Below, in pieces: positions 2-9,356 of a DNA stretch of 9,841 nucleotides (its first letter is position 1; each line of letters starts with the position of its first letter). This stretch comes from Pseudomonadota bacterium (GTDB lineage: Bacteria; Myxococcota; UBA9042; PHBI01): assembly GCA_005772945.1 (NCBI GenBank), contig SXIE01000257.1, positions 1 to 9,841 on the forward strand, read 5' to 3'. The notes below the pieces were generated by a model. The model had not been told where the DNA came from and made no database searches. It worked only from the letters and a program-made list of their open reading frames with translations. The position numbers and the translations under genes are program-made.

Positions 2-763
2 CCGGTGCGCGTGCTCGACGTGGCGTCGCGGACGCGCGCGGCGGCACAGGGCGAGGTCGGGCGGGCCGTGCACGATGTCGCCTGCGACCGCGAGGGAGGT
101 CGCGTGGCGGTGCTCGCGCCGGCGAGCGCGACCCTGACGGTCGACGACGCGCTGGTCGTCTACGAGGTCCCGCCGGGGCTTGCGCCCGCGGGGCGCGAGC
201 TCTTTCGGCCGCCCGGGCCGCTCGCGCGCGGGAGCGTGGCGCTGTCACCGGATGGTGCGTTCGTCGCGGTCGCCTCGACCGACGGGCGCGTCGTGGCGTG
301 GAAGGTCGGCGAGGGGACGCCGGTGCTGGCGTGGCGGCACGCGTCGCCTGTTCGGCGCGTGGTCTTCGGGGCGGTGGGGAGGACGCTGTGGGTGTCCGAC
401 GAGCGCGAGATCAGGCACTGGGATCTGGCGACGATTGCGGAGGCGGGCCCGGAGGCGGGCGCGGCACCGGCGGTCGCGACGACGGCCGGGGAAGCCCTGC
501 GCGGGCTGGTCGCGCTGGCGGATGGGCGCGTCGTCGGCGTGGGTCACGTCGCGGGCGACGGCGGGGGCTTGGCGTTCTACGACGGAGCGAGCGGGGCGGA
601 GCTCGGGCGCGCAAGGACCGGCTGCCGCTGCGAGCGGCACGCGGTCAGCGCGGACGCCAAGACGGCGGTCTGCCTATGCGCGGACGCGACGGAGATCCGC
701 TGGGGGCCGATCGTCATCCCGGTTGCGGGCGCAAAAGACGGCGGCGGCTCAACGAAGCTTTAA
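2..763 (+). CDS. WD40-type beta-propeller protein, C-terminal part (5' end outside window)
   Basis: The reading frame is open to the first base, so this is probably the C-terminal part of a longer protein. The GTG at position 5 is only the first in-window start codon and need not be the true start. WD40/propeller blades are visible around residues 77-101 (counted from that GTG), with a 'SPDGAFVAVASTDGRVVAWK' blade, and around 115-141, ending in 'IRHWDL'. A further degenerate blade (about 165-200) ends in 'LAFYDGASGAELG'. WD40 propellers are protein-protein interaction platforms; in bacteria they often sit behind sensor or kinase domains, but nothing upstream is visible here. An odd feature is two CxC pairs near the end (C207/C209 and C223/C225), which could form disulfides or bind metal. 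Stop is TAA at 761-763. The gene converges on the minus-strand CsgG-like gene and overlaps its 3' end by 15 bp. Confidence 0.72.
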   Translation, partial: PVRVLDVASRTRAAAQGEVGRAVHDVACDREGGRVAVLAPASATLTVDDALVVYEVPPGLAPAGRELFRPPGPLARGSVALSPDGAFVAVASTDGRVVAWKVGEGTPVLAWRHASPVRRVVFGAVGRTLWVSDEREIRHWDLATIAEAGPEAGAAPAVATTAGEALRGLVALADGRVVGVGHVAGDGGGLAFYDGASGAELGRARTGCRCERHAVSADAKTAVCLCADATEIRWGPIVIPVAGAKDGGGSTKL

Positions 764-2974
764 TGCGTCGATCTGGACGTAGCCGGCGCTGCTGACGACC
801 AGGCCCGGGAATCCTGCGACCTTGCCGGGCAGCGTGAAGTGGTGCGTGCGGCCATCGACGGTGACGTCGACGCCGCCCTTGCCGAGCGTCACGGTGACGG
901 CGCTCTTGTCGGCGCTAGGCGCGAGTCCCGCCTTCTCGAGCGGGACCACCTGGAAGTGGTTGGCGTAGCCACCGCGGCTCTTGTCGTCGGGGAGGAGCTT
1001 GACGAGGGCGAGGCCGCTGGGCCCGATGCGCACGCCCCAGCCGGCGAGCGGGGCCTTGGCGGCGAGGTTCTCGAGGCCGAAGGCGATCGTCACGTCGGGG
1101 CGGTCGCGAGACTCGGTCTTGTAGTTGGGGCGCCAGTCGGCGGCCGGGCGGTAGTCGAGCGTGAGCGACACGGTGAAGGCGTCGCGCGCCGTGTCGCCGA
1201 GCACGGCGAGAAAGAGCGGGAGGGGGGTCTTGGGCGCCTTATCGCCGTGGGCAAGCGCTGCGCGCTCTTCGCGAGCGAAATAGCGTAGGCCTGACCCCCG
1301 CTCGCGCGTCACGGCGGCGGAATGCCAGACGTCGGCGCGATCGCTGAGCAGCGGGAAGAGGACGACGCTGTCCAGCCACACGAAGGCCTCGCCTTCGCGC
1401 TCTTTCGCGATCTGGCGCACGTGCTGGAGCTCGCGCAGGGCCTTATCTCCGAGGGTGCTGCCGGTGAACTCTTTCTGGAGCAGGCGGATCCCGTGGATGG
1501 GCGGGTCGCTGCCACGGAGCACGGCGAACTCGCGGCGAAAGCGCTGGAGCGGGTCGGACCGCTGGAGCTCGGCCAGCAGATCGCGCCCCCACTCGAGCTG
1601 TTGGGCGATCTTGTCGAGGGTCTTGGCGTCGTCGGTGAGGGTTCGCGCCTCGGTGAGGACCTTCGCGGCGCGGTCGGTGAGGGCGAACTTGAGGAGGTTC
1701 TCGCCGAGGCGGAGGCGCTCGCGCAGGCGCACGTCCTTGGTCCAGGTCGCGTCGCAGTCGCGCACGATGCGCTCCTGGAGCGCGAGGCGCTCGCTCACGT
1801 CCATCTGCAGTTGCACGCCGATGTGGGCGAGTGCGTAGCTCACGTCGGAGCCGCAGCGCTGGCCGCTCGCACTCTCGCGCGCCTTGGCGAACCAGGGCCG
1901 AAACGCCTTGTCCATGTCGGCGGGCCACGGGAGAACGCCGTAGAGCGTGCCGTAGGGAAGGGGGGCGACCTTGCCGCGGAGCGCGGTCGCTTCGGCCATG
2001 TAGGTTGCCACCCAGCGGTCCGACATGCGGTTGAGCGCGAACGCGTCGCCCGTGTCGTGGAGCGAGCGGAAGCGGTCGGACGGCGCGCGATCGGGGCTGA
2101 AGAAGTCCCCGAGGAGCCACGCCGCGACGGCCCGATCGACCGGGTCCTTGGCGCTCTCGTGGATGCGCACGAGCTGGTCGAGCATCGATTTGTCCCACGC
2201 CGTCGCCGCGGAGGCGAGCAGCTTGGCGCGCTCGTCCTCGGCGTGGTGAGCGGCCTGGGCGTGGCCGCGCGCGTCGGCGGCCAGACGCTCGTAGTCGGCG
2301 AGCGTCTGGCGCGCGAGCGCGAAGTTGCCGTCGATCTGGGAGGCCTTGCGGAGCGCGGTGAGCGCTTCGTCGTAGCGCTTGGCCTCGAACTGGGCCAGGC
2401 CCTCGGAGTACGCGCGGAAGGCCTCGAGGTCGGCCGTCTGAACGGTCGTTAGCTTGGCGCGCTCCTTGGGCTCGAGCTTCATGCCGATGCCGTCGACCAG
2501 GCGCTTGACGAGGTCCTTCTCGAGCTCGAAGAAGGCGTCCTTGTCACCCTCGATCTTGGCGGTCGTCGTGACCTCGCCGCTGGCGACCGCGATGAGGCGC
2601 GCGTCGAGCCGGAGCGTCTTGCCGACGACGGTGAACGAGCCGGCGACCAGGTGGGTCGCGCCCGTGAGCTTGCCGATCTTGGCGGCGGTGGCCGGGTCGA
2701 GCGCGCCCTTCTTGCCGAGATTCAGCTCGCTCTGGATGTCGGCGAGGCGCGCGCGCTCGACGACCTGGAGGTCGCTGCGGACGCTCGCGAGCTCGGCCAT
2801 GTCGGTCGTCAGCATCGACTGCAGGCCCTTGCCGAGGGCATCCCATTCGGGGTCGGGCGCGGCGTTGTCGAAGTCGAGGACCGCCACGCGCCACCCCGCC
2901 GCGATGGCTTCGGAGGCGGTCGCGAGCGTGGTCGGGGCGGCCACGAGCAGGAGCGCGAGCAGGCGCGAAATCAT
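749..2974 (-). CDS. CsgG-like domain/TPR exported protein, downstream paralogue
   Basis: A 741-aa protein starting at ATG 2974. A hydrophobic signal peptide follows directly (MISRLLALLLVAAPTTLATA), with likely cleavage near residue 20 or 26. The frame stays open far upstream, but that stretch is Arg-rich antisense-like sequence across the neighbouring gene, so the signal-peptide ATG is the convincing start. Residues about 29-160 match the CsgG/TolB-like fold: 'VAVLDF', then 'GLQSMLTTD', 'VVERARLADI' and 'THLVAGSF'. A TPR-like helical pair lies at about 183-230 (YDEALTALRKASQIDGNFAL). A long helical region follows to about 540. The end (about 595-741) looks like a concanavalin/LamG-type beta-sandwich ('VDVTVDGRTHHF', 'GYVQIDALKLR'); that part is inference. 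CsgG itself is an outer-membrane secretion channel, but CsgG-like domains in long TPR proteins are mostly uncharacterised, so periplasmic or outer-membrane location is the safe statement. It lies 26 bp after its paralogue and has no clear Shine-Dalgarno, which fits translation coupled to the upstream gene. Confidence 0.83.
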   Translation of the reverse strand: MISRLLALLLVAAPTTLATASEAIAAGWRVAVLDFDNAAPDPEWDALGKGLQSMLTTDMAELASVRSDLQVVERARLADIQSELNLGKKGALDPATAAKIGKLTGATHLVAGSFTVVGKTLRLDARLIAVASGEVTTTAKIEGDKDAFFELEKDLVKRLVDGIGMKLEPKERAKLTTVQTADLEAFRAYSEGLAQFEAKRYDEALTALRKASQIDGNFALARQTLADYERLAADARGHAQAAHHAEDERAKLLASAATAWDKSMLDQLVRIHESAKDPVDRAVAAWLLGDFFSPDRAPSDRFRSLHDTGDAFALNRMSDRWVATYMAEATALRGKVAPLPYGTLYGVLPWPADMDKAFRPWFAKARESASGQRCGSDVSYALAHIGVQLQMDVSERLALQERIVRDCDATWTKDVRLRERLRLGENLLKFALTDRAAKVLTEARTLTDDAKTLDKIAQQLEWGRDLLAELQRSDPLQRFRREFAVLRGSDPPIHGIRLLQKEFTGSTLGDKALRELQHVRQIAKEREGEAFVWLDSVVLFPLLSDRADVWHSAAVTRERGSGLRYFAREERAALAHGDKAPKTPLPLFLAVLGDTARDAFTVSLTLDYRPAADWRPNYKTESRDRPDVTIAFGLENLAAKAPLAGWGVRIGPSGLALVKLLPDDKSRGGYANHFQVVPLEKAGLAPSADKSAVTVTLGKGGVDVTVDGRTHHFTLPGKVAGFPGLVVSSAGYVQIDALKLR

Positions 2975-3000
2975 AGGTGTACCAACTATGTTGTTGGGGA

Positions 3001-5300
3001 CTACCGAAGGTCGGGGGCCGTGAACGCGACGTAGCCATCGCCCCATCCCCCGAGGACGAGCCAGCCGGCGCGGAGCTCGGAGGTCGTGAAGCGGTGGGAG
3101 GCCGCGCCGACCTTGACGTCCAGCGTCGTGCCGCGGCGCGTGATCTGAACGCGCGTCGGCGACGTGGTCCCCAGCCGGGGCGCCGCGGTGCTGAGCGGGG
3201 CGAGCGTCATGCGCGCCCAGCGATCGCGCCCGCGCTCGCCGGGGATGACGTGGGCGAGCGTCGTGCCGGCGGTGTCGATGCGCAGCGCCAAGCCCGCGGG
3301 GGCGTCGCGCTCGGGCGTCTTCGGCGCCGCGGAGGTATTGCGCGCGGGGAGCGGCGGCTCGAGCACGTCGATGCCCAAGAGGACGACGACGGCCGGGTGC
3401 GCGTCGGTCGGCGGTTGGCCGAAGGTCCAGTCGCGATCGAGTCCGCTCGGCCGCGCGAGATCCACGTCGAACGCCAGGCGCACCTCGTCGCGCGGGTGGT
3501 CGCCGAGCACCCAGAGTCCGCGCGCCGCGCGGTCTTGCCGGAACTGGCCCGCCCCCCAGGCGAGGCCGTCGACGCGCCAAGGGTCGGGCACCGCCCCCGG
3601 CCGGAGCGGCGTTCGCCACGCGCGTCCCGCGTCGTACACCAGCGGGAACACGAGCAGGCTCTTCCACCAGAAAAACGGCAGCGCCGCGACCGAGCCGAGC
3701 TGGCGCGCGTGCCAGAGCTGGGAATCCGTGGCGGGGGTCGCGGCCGTCCCAGCAAGGTCGCGATCGAGCGATGCGTCGCGATCGCCGAAGGCGACGAACT
3801 CGCGGCGTGCGTCCGTGAGCGCGTCCTTCCGAAGGAGCTCGCGATGGAGCGCGGCACCTGCTTCGAGCGCCTTGGCGATGCGCCGGAGCTCGCGGGGATC
3901 GTCGGTCGCCGTGCGCGCCTCGCCCCAGAGCCGTGCCGCGGTCTCGGTGTCGCCGAGCGCCAGCCAGGCGTCGGCCAGTCCTTGCAAGAGGCTCGCGCGG
4001 TCCCGCGGCTGCTGACGTCCCGCCCGCGGCGCGAGACGCTCCGCCAGGCGCAACGTGGTGCGCAGGTCGAGGTGCATCATCTGCCCGGCCGCGATGAACT
4101 CGGCGGCGAGCTCGCTGCTGGTCACCCACTTGCGCCGAATGTGGTCTGCGCGGTCCGCGTAGGATGCGTCCAGGTCCGCCTGCGATGCGCTCTTGACGGG
4201 GGTGTTCGAGAGGCGCGGGGGCAGCGGCAGCGGTGCGTCCGGCGCGGCCTCGGCGCTCGCAAGATAGTTGGTGTACCAACGATCGCGCAGCCGCTCGAGC
4301 GCGAAACCATCGGCGTGGGCGTGGAGCTGCTGGAACTGCGTCGGGATCCCGCCGTGCGCGTTGAAGGCGCCCGCCAGGAGCAGGGCAGCGATGGCCTTGT
4401 CGGCCGGGGTCGCCGGCTGCGCGTGGCGGCGTTCGAGGTCGGCGATCGTGGCGGGCTCGAGCGCGTCGGCCTGGGCAGCCACGCGGAGCTCGGCGAGGTC
4501 GGCCGCCTGCTGGGCGGCTTCGGCGTGCGCGTGCGCGTCGGCGACCAGGCGCTCGTAGTCGGCGAGCGTATGGTGGGCGAGCGCGAAGGCCGGGTCGAGC
4601 TCGGCCGCGCGCCGGAGCGCCGCGAGCGCCTCGACCTCGCGCGCGCGATCGGCGAGTTCCAGCCCGTCGCCGTAGGCGCGGAGGGCGTCGAGGTTGGCGG
4701 TCGCGATCGGCGCCAGCGCCGCGCGCTCCCTCGGTGTGAGCGGCGCGCCCAGCCCCTCGATCAGGCGCCGTGCGACGTCTTTTTCGAGCTCGAAGAACGC
4801 GTCGCGCTCGCCGTCGGCGGAGGCGCTCGCCACGACGGCGCCGGTCGCGACGCGCACCAAGCGTGCGTCGATGCGAAGGCGCGCGCCGACGAGCGTGAAG
4901 CTGCCGACGACCAGGTGGGAGGCCCCGAGGAGCTTGCCGATCGCGGCGGCTGAGCGGGCGTCGACCGCGCCGGCGGCGGCCAGTCGCAGCTCGGCGCCGA
5001 TGTCCTTCAGGCGCGCGCGTTCGACGATCTCGATGCTCGGACGCACGGCTGCGAGCGCGGCGAGATCGGTCGTGAGCATCGATTGCAGCCCGACGCCGAG
5101 GCCGTTCCAACCGGAGTCGGAGCCGGCGGCGTCGAAGGCGAGCACCGCGAGCCGATGCGGGGGCGTTGGGGCCGGCGCGGCGCGGGCCAGGCCAGGCCAG
5201 GCCAGGCCGCCGCGAGGAGTGCGAAGGCCACGAGCCATGCGTGCCACCGACGGGCGCGCGCGAGGGGCTCGAGGGCGGAACGCGATGTAGAAACCACCAC
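3001..5300 (-). CDS. CsgG-like domain/TPR exported protein, upstream paralogue, frame-broken at a 5-bp repeat
   Basis: The body frame (stop TAG 3001-3003) begins at GTG 5247 or ATG 5238 and would give 748 or 745 aa without a signal peptide. Further upstream a second frame, starting at GTG 5300 or GTG 5297, encodes a convincing signal peptide (RRWHAWLVAFALLAAAWPG), but in the sequence given it runs to a TGA at 5007-5009 after 97 codons. The switch point is the GGCCA repeat at 5185-5208. Losing one unit gives a continuous 764-aa precursor with 'LLAAAWPGLARAAPAP' leading into 'HRLAVLAFD'. The body parallels the downstream gene: CsgG-like domain ('GLQSMLTTDLAALAAVR', 'IEIVERARLKDI', 'SHLVVGSFTLVG'), 'DAFFELEKD', a TPR-like stretch near residues 186-234 of the 748-aa reading, a helical middle and a C-terminal beta-sandwich-like region. 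Its middle and C-terminal halves have diverged much more. It starts 12 bp after the fur-like stop, with GAGG just ahead. The body is intact over more than 700 codons, so the break is recent, reversible or artefactual. Confidence 0.8.
5185..5208. repeat. Pentanucleotide tandem repeat, 4.8 copies of GGCCA, at the signal-peptide/body junction
   Basis: Four perfect GGCCA units (5185-5204) are followed by GGCC (5205-5208). On the coding (minus) strand it reads as CCTGG-type repeats encoding the end of the signal peptide. Because the unit is not a multiple of three, each gain or loss changes the reading frame. In the present state the upstream start frame does not connect to the body frame; minus one unit or plus two units connects them. 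Short perfect tandem repeats are known slippage sites. Confidence 0.92.
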
Positions 5301-5302
5301 GA

Positions 5303-5306
5303 CCTC
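5303..5306 (-). promoter_or_regulatory. Probable Shine-Dalgarno for the upstream CsgG-like gene
   Basis: GAGG on the minus strand lies 2 nt before GTG 5300 and 5 nt before GTG 5297. The second spacing is the more usual, so GTG 5297 may be the real initiation codon. No comparable site precedes GTG 5247, which supports translation starting in the signal-peptide frame. Confidence 0.45.
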
Positions 5307-5312
5307 AGCCGC

Positions 5313-5804
5313 TCAGGAGGGTGTGCAGTCGTTGCAGACGCCGCGCAGCTGGATCTCGACGTCACCGTTGTTCACGGCCTGTTGCTCGCCCTTGCCCTCG
5401 ACGCGCACGACGACGCCCGCCAGGTGCGTGACCTCGCCGCAATCGACGCACACGAAGTGCGGGTGATCGGTGCAGGGGTTGACGCGCCCGGCGCGTTCGA
5501 AGCGCTGGAGCCCGCCGATCTCGGTCTTCTTCGCCAGCCCCGCGTCGGTGAGGTCGATGAGGTTGCGGTAGAGGGTCGAGCGATTCCACGCCGAGGCGCG
5601 CAGCTGGCCGGCGAGCTCGTGATGCGTGAGCGGGCCGCCCGAGGCGTCGAGCCGCTCCAGGACGGCGAGGCGCGATGAGGTCACGCGCAGGCCGGCGGCC
5701 CGGATGAGGTCGACGCGCGCGGCCTGGGCCGGGTCCATGTCGGCGCCTGGGAGCGCGTCGTGCTCGTCGTGATGCGCCTGGTCGTGATGGACGTGGTCGA
5801 CCAT
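5313..5804 (-). CDS. Fur-family metal-dependent transcriptional repressor with His-rich N-terminus
   Basis: A 163-aa protein of normal Fur-family length. The N-terminal winged helix is clear: 'RVTSSRLAVLERL' (about 40-52) and the recognition region 'NRSTLYRNLIDLTDAGL' (about 74-90), which matches the family's TVYRNL motif. The C-terminal metal-binding/dimerisation half has 'HPHFVCVDCGEV', giving C119 and C122, and a second pair C157/C160 near the end. The two CxxC pairs are the structural zinc site of the family. H114 and H116 are likely regulatory-metal ligands. Whether it senses iron, zinc or peroxide (Fur, Zur, PerR) cannot be decided from these residues. The first 16 residues are His-rich (HVHHDQAHHDEHD), an unusual extension that may bind metal; M23 is an alternative start that would remove it. 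ATG 5804 lies 4 bp after the sufE stop, with GAGG overlapping that stop. Adjacency to sufE favours a role in iron or Fe-S homeostasis. Confidence 0.9.
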   Translation of the reverse strand: MVDHVHHDQAHHDEHDALPGADMDPAQAARVDLIRAAGLRVTSSRLAVLERLDASGGPLTHHELAGQLRASAWNRSTLYRNLIDLTDAGLAKKTEIGGLQRFERAGRVNPCTDHPHFVCVDCGEVTHLAGVVVRVEGKGEQQAVNNGDVEIQLRGVCNDCTPS

Positions 5805-8338: not shown

Positions 8339-9214
8339 TCACGTGATGAAATGAACGCCCGGGATCTCGCCGCCCATGACGACCGGACCGACCGGCACGT
8401 AGGGCGGCGCGAACGTCGGCACCGGCCCCTTGCCCATGACGAGCATGATCTGCTGCATCGGCAGCCAGGTCAGGAAGTTCGTCGACAGCCCCATCGCGAT
8501 CGACTCGAAGATCGCGTCGTGCTGCTTGTCCGTGTCGTCCCCGTCGAGATCGCCTTCCTTGAACTTGTCGAGGATGCAGCTCTTGAGCTGCATGAAGACC
8601 GCCAGCTTCACCATCATCGGCGACGGGCACACGATGAGCGGCATCGGGATGCTCGGCATCGGCGGCGCCATCGGCCCCGGGTACGCGGCGAACGCCGGGT
8701 ACCACGGCAGGCCCGGGACCATGACCTTGCTGGCCCACTGGTCCCAGGCGTCGGTCACGCCCTCGACGACCGCCTTGATGTAGACCTTCTCGTTGTTTTC
8801 TTTGCCGATCCAGGTCGAGTACGGGACCGTGTCCTTGAGCTTGGGGCCATCGAGGCAGCCGGGCGTGCCGATGCAGCACACGGCCATGACCTTCAGGTCC
8901 TTCAGCTTGGCCTGCAGGCGCCACATGTCGATAGCCTGCGCGGTCTTGTCGATCGCGGCATCGACGAAGGTCTTCACCTTGTCGGAGATGTCCTTGGCCG
9001 CCGTGCCGTGGTCTTTGAGCGTCGAGGCGTTCCAGAAGTAGGTGCGCGGCGCCGGCGGGCCCGCGCCCATGTGATCGGCGGCGGGATAGGCCTTGGTGAA
9101 GTGGTCCTGCGCTGGATCCCCCGAGGGGTTTTTCCAGTCGATCGGCAACTTCTTCATCTTCAGCTGGAACCAACTCTGGGCCAGCATTTTCATCGGCAAG
9201 GTCCAACCGGGCAT
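8339..9214 (-). CDS. Uncharacterised Met/Trp-rich protein, 291 aa
   Basis: I do not recognise this family. ATG 9214 is preceded by GAGG (9225-9222) at 7-nt spacing, a good Shine-Dalgarno, so the in-frame extension to 9337 is not needed. The protein has no signal peptide. Composition differs from its neighbours: about 19 Met and 10 Trp in 291 residues, and Lys used far more than in the Arg-rich genes around it. Visible parts: a basic N-terminus with 'PMKMLAQSWFQLKMKKLPID'; a helical, Lys/Asp-rich stretch (about 71-108); 'VCCIGTPGC' (112-120); a Pro/Met-rich linker (about 164-200) with 'PPMPSIPMPLIVCPSPMM'; an acidic loop 'GDLDGDDTD' (221-229) that only loosely resembles a calcium-binding loop; and a Gly/Val/Pro-rich tail ending 'GGEIPGVHFIT'. 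The Pro/Met linker and Gly-rich tail are reminiscent of phage-tail or secretion-associated structural proteins, but that is a weak impression and no such genes are adjacent. Confidence 0.78.
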   Translation of the reverse strand: MPGWTLPMKMLAQSWFQLKMKKLPIDWKNPSGDPAQDHFTKAYPAADHMGAGPPAPRTYFWNASTLKDHGTAAKDISDKVKTFVDAAIDKTAQAIDMWRLQAKLKDLKVMAVCCIGTPGCLDGPKLKDTVPYSTWIGKENNEKVYIKAVVEGVTDAWDQWASKVMVPGLPWYPAFAAYPGPMAPPMPSIPMPLIVCPSPMMVKLAVFMQLKSCILDKFKEGDLDGDDTDKQHDAIFESIAMGLSTNFLTWLPMQQIMLVMGKGPVPTFAPPYVPVGPVVMGGEIPGVHFIT

Positions 9215-9327
9215 GACCAAACCTCGTGGGCAAGGGTGCGAGTAAGGGACGAGCGGCGCCCGGCGGGGCAACCCGATTCCGTGCGGGGTTGCCAACCAGG
9301 CGCGAGTGGATAGGCTGGGCCGGCTCG

Positions 9328-9356
9328 GCCTCACCATCGAATTCGGTGGATGAGGC
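9328..9356. promoter_or_regulatory. 29-bp imperfect palindrome in the divergent upstream region
   Basis: GCCTCA (9328-9333) pairs with TGAGGC (9351-9356), and within them CCATCGAATTCGGTGG (9334-9349) is palindromic except for one T/G pair. A single unpaired A (9350) separates inner and outer arms. It lies 114 bp upstream of the minus-strand ATG 9214 and 97 bp upstream of the plus-strand ATG 9454. It could be an operator shared by the divergent genes or a hairpin in the minus-strand leader. Confidence 0.4.

What the first reader, a model, noticed from the sequence alone, without database searches (positions are those of the whole stretch)
5185..5300. Possible phase-variable export switch: 5-bp tandem repeat separates signal peptide and body of a CsgG-like protein
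The GTG 5300/5297 frame encodes a strong signal peptide preceded by GAGG, but it leads to a TGA at 5007-5009. The 700-plus-codon CsgG/TPR body lies in another frame. The switch sits inside 4.8 copies of GGCCA. Arithmetic shows that losing one unit (-5) or gaining two (+10) fuses the frames to give 'LLAAAWPGLARAAPAP' followed by the mature domain. As written, only internal starts (GTG 5247, ATG 5238) make the body, without a signal peptide, so the repeat could toggle between exported, cytoplasmic and no product. The downstream paralogue has an intact signal peptide and no such repeat. Sequencing or assembly error remains a plausible alternative.
Basis: partly seen in the sequence, partly recalled or inferred. 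Interest (0 to 1): 0.78.

Follow-up and report, generated by a model that had tools for sequence, protein, structure and literature searches.

The report
Frame-breaking repeat in export signal
In a bacterium of unknown identity, a short five-letter DNA repeat sits inside the export signal of a protein gene and puts it out of frame; this is probably an ordinary slippage accident or a sequence artefact, although a reversible on/off switch is not ruled out.

Summary
In detail: 4.8 perfect GGCCA copies (5185-5208) separate a leader frame (GTG 5300/5297, stop 5009-5007) from a 727-codon body in another frame. A relative, P0002 (82% identical), shows both halves are one gene: residues 2-31 match the leader frame (18/30; 0 of 2000 shuffles as good) and 36-65 match the body after the array (28/30), in one frame, with 12 nt between them where the window has 26. 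In 21 of 21 distinct relatives examined, a hydrophobic leader is in frame without such a repeat in the leader. So the array looks lineage-specific and breaks the frame in an undecayed gene: recent, reversible or artefact. No length variant was seen; 4.8 units is just under a published cut-off of 5. The unit also occurs in 5 of 377 genomes of a related phylum sample, once perhaps at another frame break. Best reading: contingent slippage frameshift in an exported protein with a CsgG-N/LpoB-like domain (0.5); opa-like phase variation 0.2; artefact 0.2.

The parts
5185..5208 (.). (GGCCA)4.8 perfect tandem array; on the - strand it reads as turns of WPGLA in all three frames
   Evidence: translations
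5209..5300 (-). leader-coding half, frame of GTG 5300 (or 5297)
   Evidence: the piece 5300-5211 is 18/30 identical, ungapped, to P0002 residues 2-31, 0 of 2000 shuffles as good; best 12-residue hydropathy 2.36
5303..5306 (-). GAGG, SD-like element
   Evidence: sequence; duplex energies -5.0 (GTG 5300) and -6.3 (GTG 5297)
5007..5009 (-). TGA that ends the leader frame as the sequence stands
   Evidence: 58 codons after the array
3001..5184 (-). body half of csgG1: CsgG-N/LpoB-like domain, helical middle, C-terminal beta sandwich; 727 codons
5236..5247 (-). internal start codons GTG 5247 and ATG 5238 in the body frame (no leader)
   Evidence: P0001 (745 aa) starts at ATG 5238; duplex energies +1.3 and -5.1
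749..2974 (-). csgG2, tandem paralogue with intact leader
   Evidence: (scanned there from 2977)
5313..5804 (-). Fur-family regulator directly upstream, same strand
   Evidence: PF01475

Best explanation
csgG1 is one gene for an exported protein. In this lineage a GGCCA microsatellite lies between the hydrophobic core of the signal peptide and the likely cleavage site, and its present length puts leader and mature part in different frames. Shown: the frame break at the array, the one-frame arrangement in a close relative, the open and conserved body. Inferred: that slipped-strand mispairing made it, that it is a recent or minority allele, and that no exported product comes from this allele; at most a leaderless protein from GTG 5247 or ATG 5238. 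Nothing found shows an evolved switch.
For: Codon score changes frame at the array. P0002 matches both halves in a single frame, with 12 nt between the anchors against 26 nt in the window, 24 of them array. An in-frame hydrophobic leader without a short non-triplet repeat in it in 21 of 21 distinct relatives examined. Body 82% identical to P0002 over 96% and open for 727 codons. Six other complete genes of the window are open, five with Pfam matches, so there is no sign of a general indel problem. Arrays of this unit of 19 nt or more occur in 5 of 377 genomes of the phylum of G005, the backward-read control in 2 of 377. In one of the five (L030) the codon score also changes frame around the array, in another gene.
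Against: One sequence only; no reads and no DNA of P0002. The high identity right after the array would equally be expected of a reversible switch or an artefact. Over the whole leader the codon score is not positive (-1.6), so the leader half rests mainly on P0002. L030 could not be confirmed with relatives.
Confidence: 0.5

Rival explanations
1. Opa-like phase variation: slippage in the array toggles between exported protein, a truncated leader peptide and a third-frame product, so that cells of one population differ.
For: Same layout as Neisseria opa, whose CTCTT coding repeats lie in the leader-peptide region (PMC3960869, passage). The array has no stop in any frame and the body is undecayed. 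PMC5953494 notes that longer units need fewer repeats (section 5) and that short CTTCT tracts were observed (passage). Frame-changing unit lengths are usual in translational switches (recalled).
Against: 4.8 units, below the cut-off of 5 for pentanucleotides. No length variant seen. The repeat is absent from P0002 and from the leader of 21 of 21 relatives examined. No other perfect period-5 run of 14 nt or more in the window. Searches for phase variation with myxobacteria plus simple sequence repeats (1 paper) and with Myxococcota (4 papers) listed none whose title or abstract start names such a locus; none of these five was read.
Confidence: 0.2
2. Sequencing, PCR-stutter or assembly artefact: the true sequence is in frame.
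For: A single sequence: the protein database shows one member and one contig for P0001, and no whole genome is held. The body looks functional.
Against: A whole 5-nt unit is an unusual error type and 24 nt is shorter than usual reads and assembly k-mers (both recalled). No other broken gene seen among six further complete genes.
Confidence: 0.2
3. Fixed change of location: the protein is now made without a leader from GTG 5247 or ATG 5238 and works in the cytoplasm.
For: The database protein P0001 starts at ATG 5238. ATG 5238 scores -5.1 kcal/mol with the anti-SD, as good as GTG 5300 (-5.0) by this crude score.
Against: Between 5246 and 5210 the codon score favours the leader frame (+7.5 against -9.9). 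The leader piece is conserved in P0002, and 21 of 21 relatives examined and csgG2 have an in-frame hydrophobic leader. SD scores mean little here: SufE and CitMHS starts score +1.9.
Confidence: 0.08
4. Programmed -1 ribosomal frameshift joins leader and body.
For: The step from the leader frame to the body frame is -1 in sense (frame arithmetic).
Against: No XXXYYYZ heptamer in any phase starting between 5300 and 5013. P0002 needs no shift.
Confidence: 0.02

Closest known systems
Neisseria opa genes (CTCTT repeats in the leader-peptide coding region)
   Same: Pentanucleotide array, not a multiple of 3, inside the leader coding region; a change of unit number changes the frame (PMC3960869 passage; PMC3899988 passage)
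   Different: opa switching is demonstrated, about 1e-3 per cell per generation; tracts of up to 24 units are tabulated, the lower limit of 5 being the survey's own floor. Here 4.8 units, one locus, no variation shown, unrelated protein
CsgG family (PF03783) and LpoB
   Same: Residues 25-118 match PF03783, 39.5 bits against a cut-off of 20.8; the fold search lists the LpoB C-terminal domain 4q6l at rank 39, E 1.4e-3, 18% identity
   Different: Only model positions 4-99 of 210 match; no Cys in the leader, so no lipoprotein site; long helical middle and beta-sandwich C-terminus; none of the nine proteins scanned matches another curli family
Carbohydrate-binding module CBM66 and other beta-sandwich (jelly-roll-like) domains
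   Same: Best PDB matches of the model, E 4.7e-5, TM by target 0.71
   Different: 7% identity, rmsd 5.0; hits spread over many unrelated proteins of this fold (lyases, glucanases, galectins, neurexins, a toxin's binding domain), so no function follows; binding not tested

Membership tests
SSR-mediated phase-variable gene (opa type) | Repeat with a unit not divisible by 3, placed so that a unit change switches frame | tested here: met
SSR-mediated phase-variable gene (opa type) | Tract at or above the usual length cut-off (pentanucleotide, at least 5 units) | tested here: not met
   4.8 units against the cut-off in PMC5953494; a convention set for Neisseria, missed narrowly
SSR-mediated phase-variable gene (opa type) | Length variants within a population | not testable with these tools
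   no reads and no genome held; metagenome scans capped at 0
SSR-mediated phase-variable gene (opa type) | Repeat kept in homologous loci | tested here: not met
   absent from P0002 and from the leader of 21 of 21 relatives examined
CsgG curli secretion channel | Match to the whole CsgG domain | tested here: not met
   positions 4-99 of 210 only
CsgG curli secretion channel | Lipoprotein signal (lipobox Cys) | tested here: not met
   no Cys in the leader frame 5300-5211 nor in P0002 1-60
Programmed -1 frameshifting | Slippery heptamer in the overlap | tested here: not met

The most novel reading that the evidence does not exclude
A young, opa-like export switch in an uncultured, Myxococcota-like bacterium: a pentanucleotide array newly arisen between the hydrophobic core and the cleavage site of a signal peptide decides, cell by cell, whether an envelope protein with a CsgG-N/LpoB-like domain and a possible glycan-binding domain is exported, while a tandem paralogue without the repeat supplies a constant version.
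Probability: 0.15. Interest if true: 0.6.

Novelty: new member of a known kind. Interest (0 to 1): 0.3.

Why it matters
If the length varies in living cells, it would bring the opa-type leader switch to a high-GC (71.6%), probably Myxococcota-related bacterium, a group for which the searches listed no such case, with a constant tandem paralogue as built-in control. If not, it is a clear example of a GC-rich microsatellite that disables export of a protein, and a caution for gene calling: the database protein P0001 hides the break by starting at ATG 5238.

Tried and rejected
Programmed frameshifting was rejected (no slippery heptamer). A fixed leaderless protein was found unlikely. Curli secretion as a function was dropped (partial domain; no Cys). 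A special role for GGCCA was not supported: 5 of 377 genomes against 2 of 377 for the backward-read control, few counts on both sides. Of the five other arrays, three (L031, L032, L033) lie where no frame has a positive codon score; L034 was judged only by GC at codon positions and looks in frame; L030 seems to change frame over 1461-1595. I sought relatives of the L030 gene, but 8 of 57 genomes matched, one of them its own, and the rest were too distant to judge its C-terminus; it stays a lead.

Searches without a useful result: viral contigs with the protein and with an exact 22-nt pattern; plasmids with window 2900-5400; papers on CsgG, tetratricopeptide and Myxococc (none) and on GGCCA with tandem repeat and frameshift (10 papers, 8 listed, none relevant by title). 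The SufE plasmid search did not place the organism. In one search loci on the reverse strand were read in the wrong orientation; for relatives only the corrected one search is used. Of 29 relative loci (L001-L029), 8 were dropped before the count of 21 because they are contigs fetched twice (L010, L011, L012, L014, L016, L019, L020, L021). The 21 are a part: one search found matches in 120 of 377 genomes, and loci were taken for 20 of the best matches only; several of the 21 match only over the N-terminal domain.

Full report
What is there. On the - strand lie, in order, a CitMHS-type transporter, a SufE protein, a Fur-family regulator, csgG1 and csgG2. Between the end of fur (5313) and the csgG1 body is a frame that starts at GTG 5300 or 5297, 2 or 5 nt after GAGG, and encodes a leader with a hydrophobic core (best 12-residue mean hydropathy 2.36; csgG2 2.32; P0002 2.47; the internal-start peptide 0.63). 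It enters a perfect array of 4.8 GGCCA units (5185-5208) and stops at 5009-5007. The body frame runs 727 codons from the array to 3003-3001, and the third frame 1477 codons to 751-749, where it is the frame of csgG2. Because 5 and 3 share no factor, the array reads as turns of WPGLA in every frame, without a stop.

Is it more than chance? No period-5 run of 20 nt or more arose in 3 Mb each of order-2 and order-3 Markov sequence trained on the window, and no run of period 4, 5, 7 or 8 of 18 nt or more was present in 76,957 nt of nine relative loci. In 155,767 nt of L001-L029, duplicates included, there was no period-5 run of 16 nt or more. Real genomes do hold such arrays: 19 nt or more of this unit in 5 of 377 genomes of the phylum of G005, the backward-read control in 2 of 377. 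G005 is the genome of L005, titled a Myxococcales MAG; that the window belongs to the same phylum is inferred from the labels of its relatives. With about a hundred possible units, these two rates suggest at most about one array of 19 nt or more per genome (my extrapolation from two units). So the array is unusual at this place but not in kind.

One gene or two? The codon score favours the leader frame just before the array (5246-5210) and the body frame after it; over the whole leader the leader frame is best but not positive, -1.6. The protein search found one close relative, P0002, 82% identical over 96%. The two halves were aligned to it apart. The leader-frame piece (5300-5211) matches residues 2-31 without gaps, 18 of 30 identical, 0 of 2000 shuffles as good; the other two frames of the same DNA are at shuffle level (1402 and 321 of 2000 as good). 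The body piece after the array matches residues 36-65, 28 of 30. In P0002 four codons (12 nt) lie between the anchors; in the window 26 nt, the array plus two bases. The difference, 14 nt, is not a multiple of three. P0002 thus shows the same gene in one frame with no room for the array. A contig of the same length (7,502 nt) is reported for a transporter 92% identical to the window's (P0111), which suggests a shared neighbourhood.

Wider relatives. Of 29 loci, 21 are distinct gene copies. In all 21 a hydrophobic stretch (12-residue maximum 1.94 to 3.57) stands before the domain in the same open frame (position judged by eye from the printed peptides). Short non-triplet repeats within 150 nt (for period 5, 12 nt or more) were flagged in 2 of 21, L006 and L028, both upstream of the open frame. 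Several of the 21 are distant or match only over the N-terminal domain, and most of the 120 genomes with a match (of 377) were not looked at. Within these limits, leader plus body in one frame is the family state.

What the protein is. Pfam matches only the N-terminal part of CsgG. NCBIfam was run on P0002 and csgG2, not on csgG1; both match TIGR04510 far below its cut-off (63.6 and 48.1 bits against 400). An AlphaFold2 model of the body from GTG 5247, from 15 sequences (mean pLDDT 81.3, pTM 0.65), shows an alpha/beta N-terminal domain, a long helical middle and a C-terminal beta sandwich. The best PDB matches are CBM66 (E 4.7e-5) and other beta-sandwich domains of many functions, each covering a small part of the model (TM by query 0.12-0.18 in the rows listed); the LpoB C-terminal domain is rank 39 (E 1.4e-3). 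An envelope protein that binds a glycan is a guess, untested. There is no Cys for a lipid anchor in the leader piece.

How it most likely works. The array separates the hydrophobic core from the likely peptidase site ARA|AP (my reading, no predictor run), which P0002 shares. As it stands, translation from GTG 5300/5297 gives a leader followed by unrelated codons up to 5009-5007. A leaderless body could start at GTG 5247 or ATG 5238. Slipped-strand mispairing changes unit numbers in such tracts (PMC5953494, section 5; PMC3899988, passages). The body shows no decay, so the out-of-frame state is recent, reversible or not real. Without reads these cannot be told apart. I put a contingent slippage mutation at 0.5, phase variation at 0.2, artefact at 0.2.

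Comparison. The layout is that of Neisseria opa: pentameric coding repeats in the leader region, switching at about 1e-3 per cell per generation (PMC3960869, passage). A phasome survey set 5 units as minimum for pentamers and tabulates CTTCT tracts of 5-24 units, 5 being its own floor; it adds that short CTTCT tracts were also observed (PMC5953494, passages), and that longer units need fewer repeats (section 5). So 4.8 units is no proof of stability. Membership among phase-variable genes is not claimed; it would work like opa if the length varies.

A second instance? In L030 the codon score moves from the first to the second frame over 1461-1595, around a 22-nt array of the same unit, and returns to the first frame from about 1641. 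If real, slippage in this unit also breaks a different gene in another genome, which favours a general mutational process over a designed switch. Relatives could not confirm it.

Limits. No genome is held for the window; the reads and the DNA of P0002 were out of reach. The database shows one member and one contig for P0001 and a contig of 12,944 nt for the csgG2 protein P0040: possibly a second assembly of the same organism, which should be read first.

Noticed in passing
window 749-2974 (-): The csgG2 protein (P0040, 100% identical) is listed with a contig of 12,944 nt, while csgG1 (P0001) is listed with 9,841 nt: a second contig of the same organism may exist.
   Followed up: partly
L030:1498-1519: A 22-nt array of the same unit lies where the codon score changes frame near the end of another gene, a possible independent frame break.
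   Followed up: partly
window 749-5365 (-), third frame: A 1538-codon open frame runs through csgG1 out of frame and into csgG2 in frame; probably a by-product of 71.6% GC.
   Followed up: no
L025 around 1501: A CsgG-N relative has a run of in-frame PLWNAR copies (18-nt unit) just before its leader core; this unit length cannot break the frame.
   Followed up: no
window 8339-9337 (-): A 332-residue protein without a Pfam or NCBIfam match at E<=0.001.
   Followed up: no
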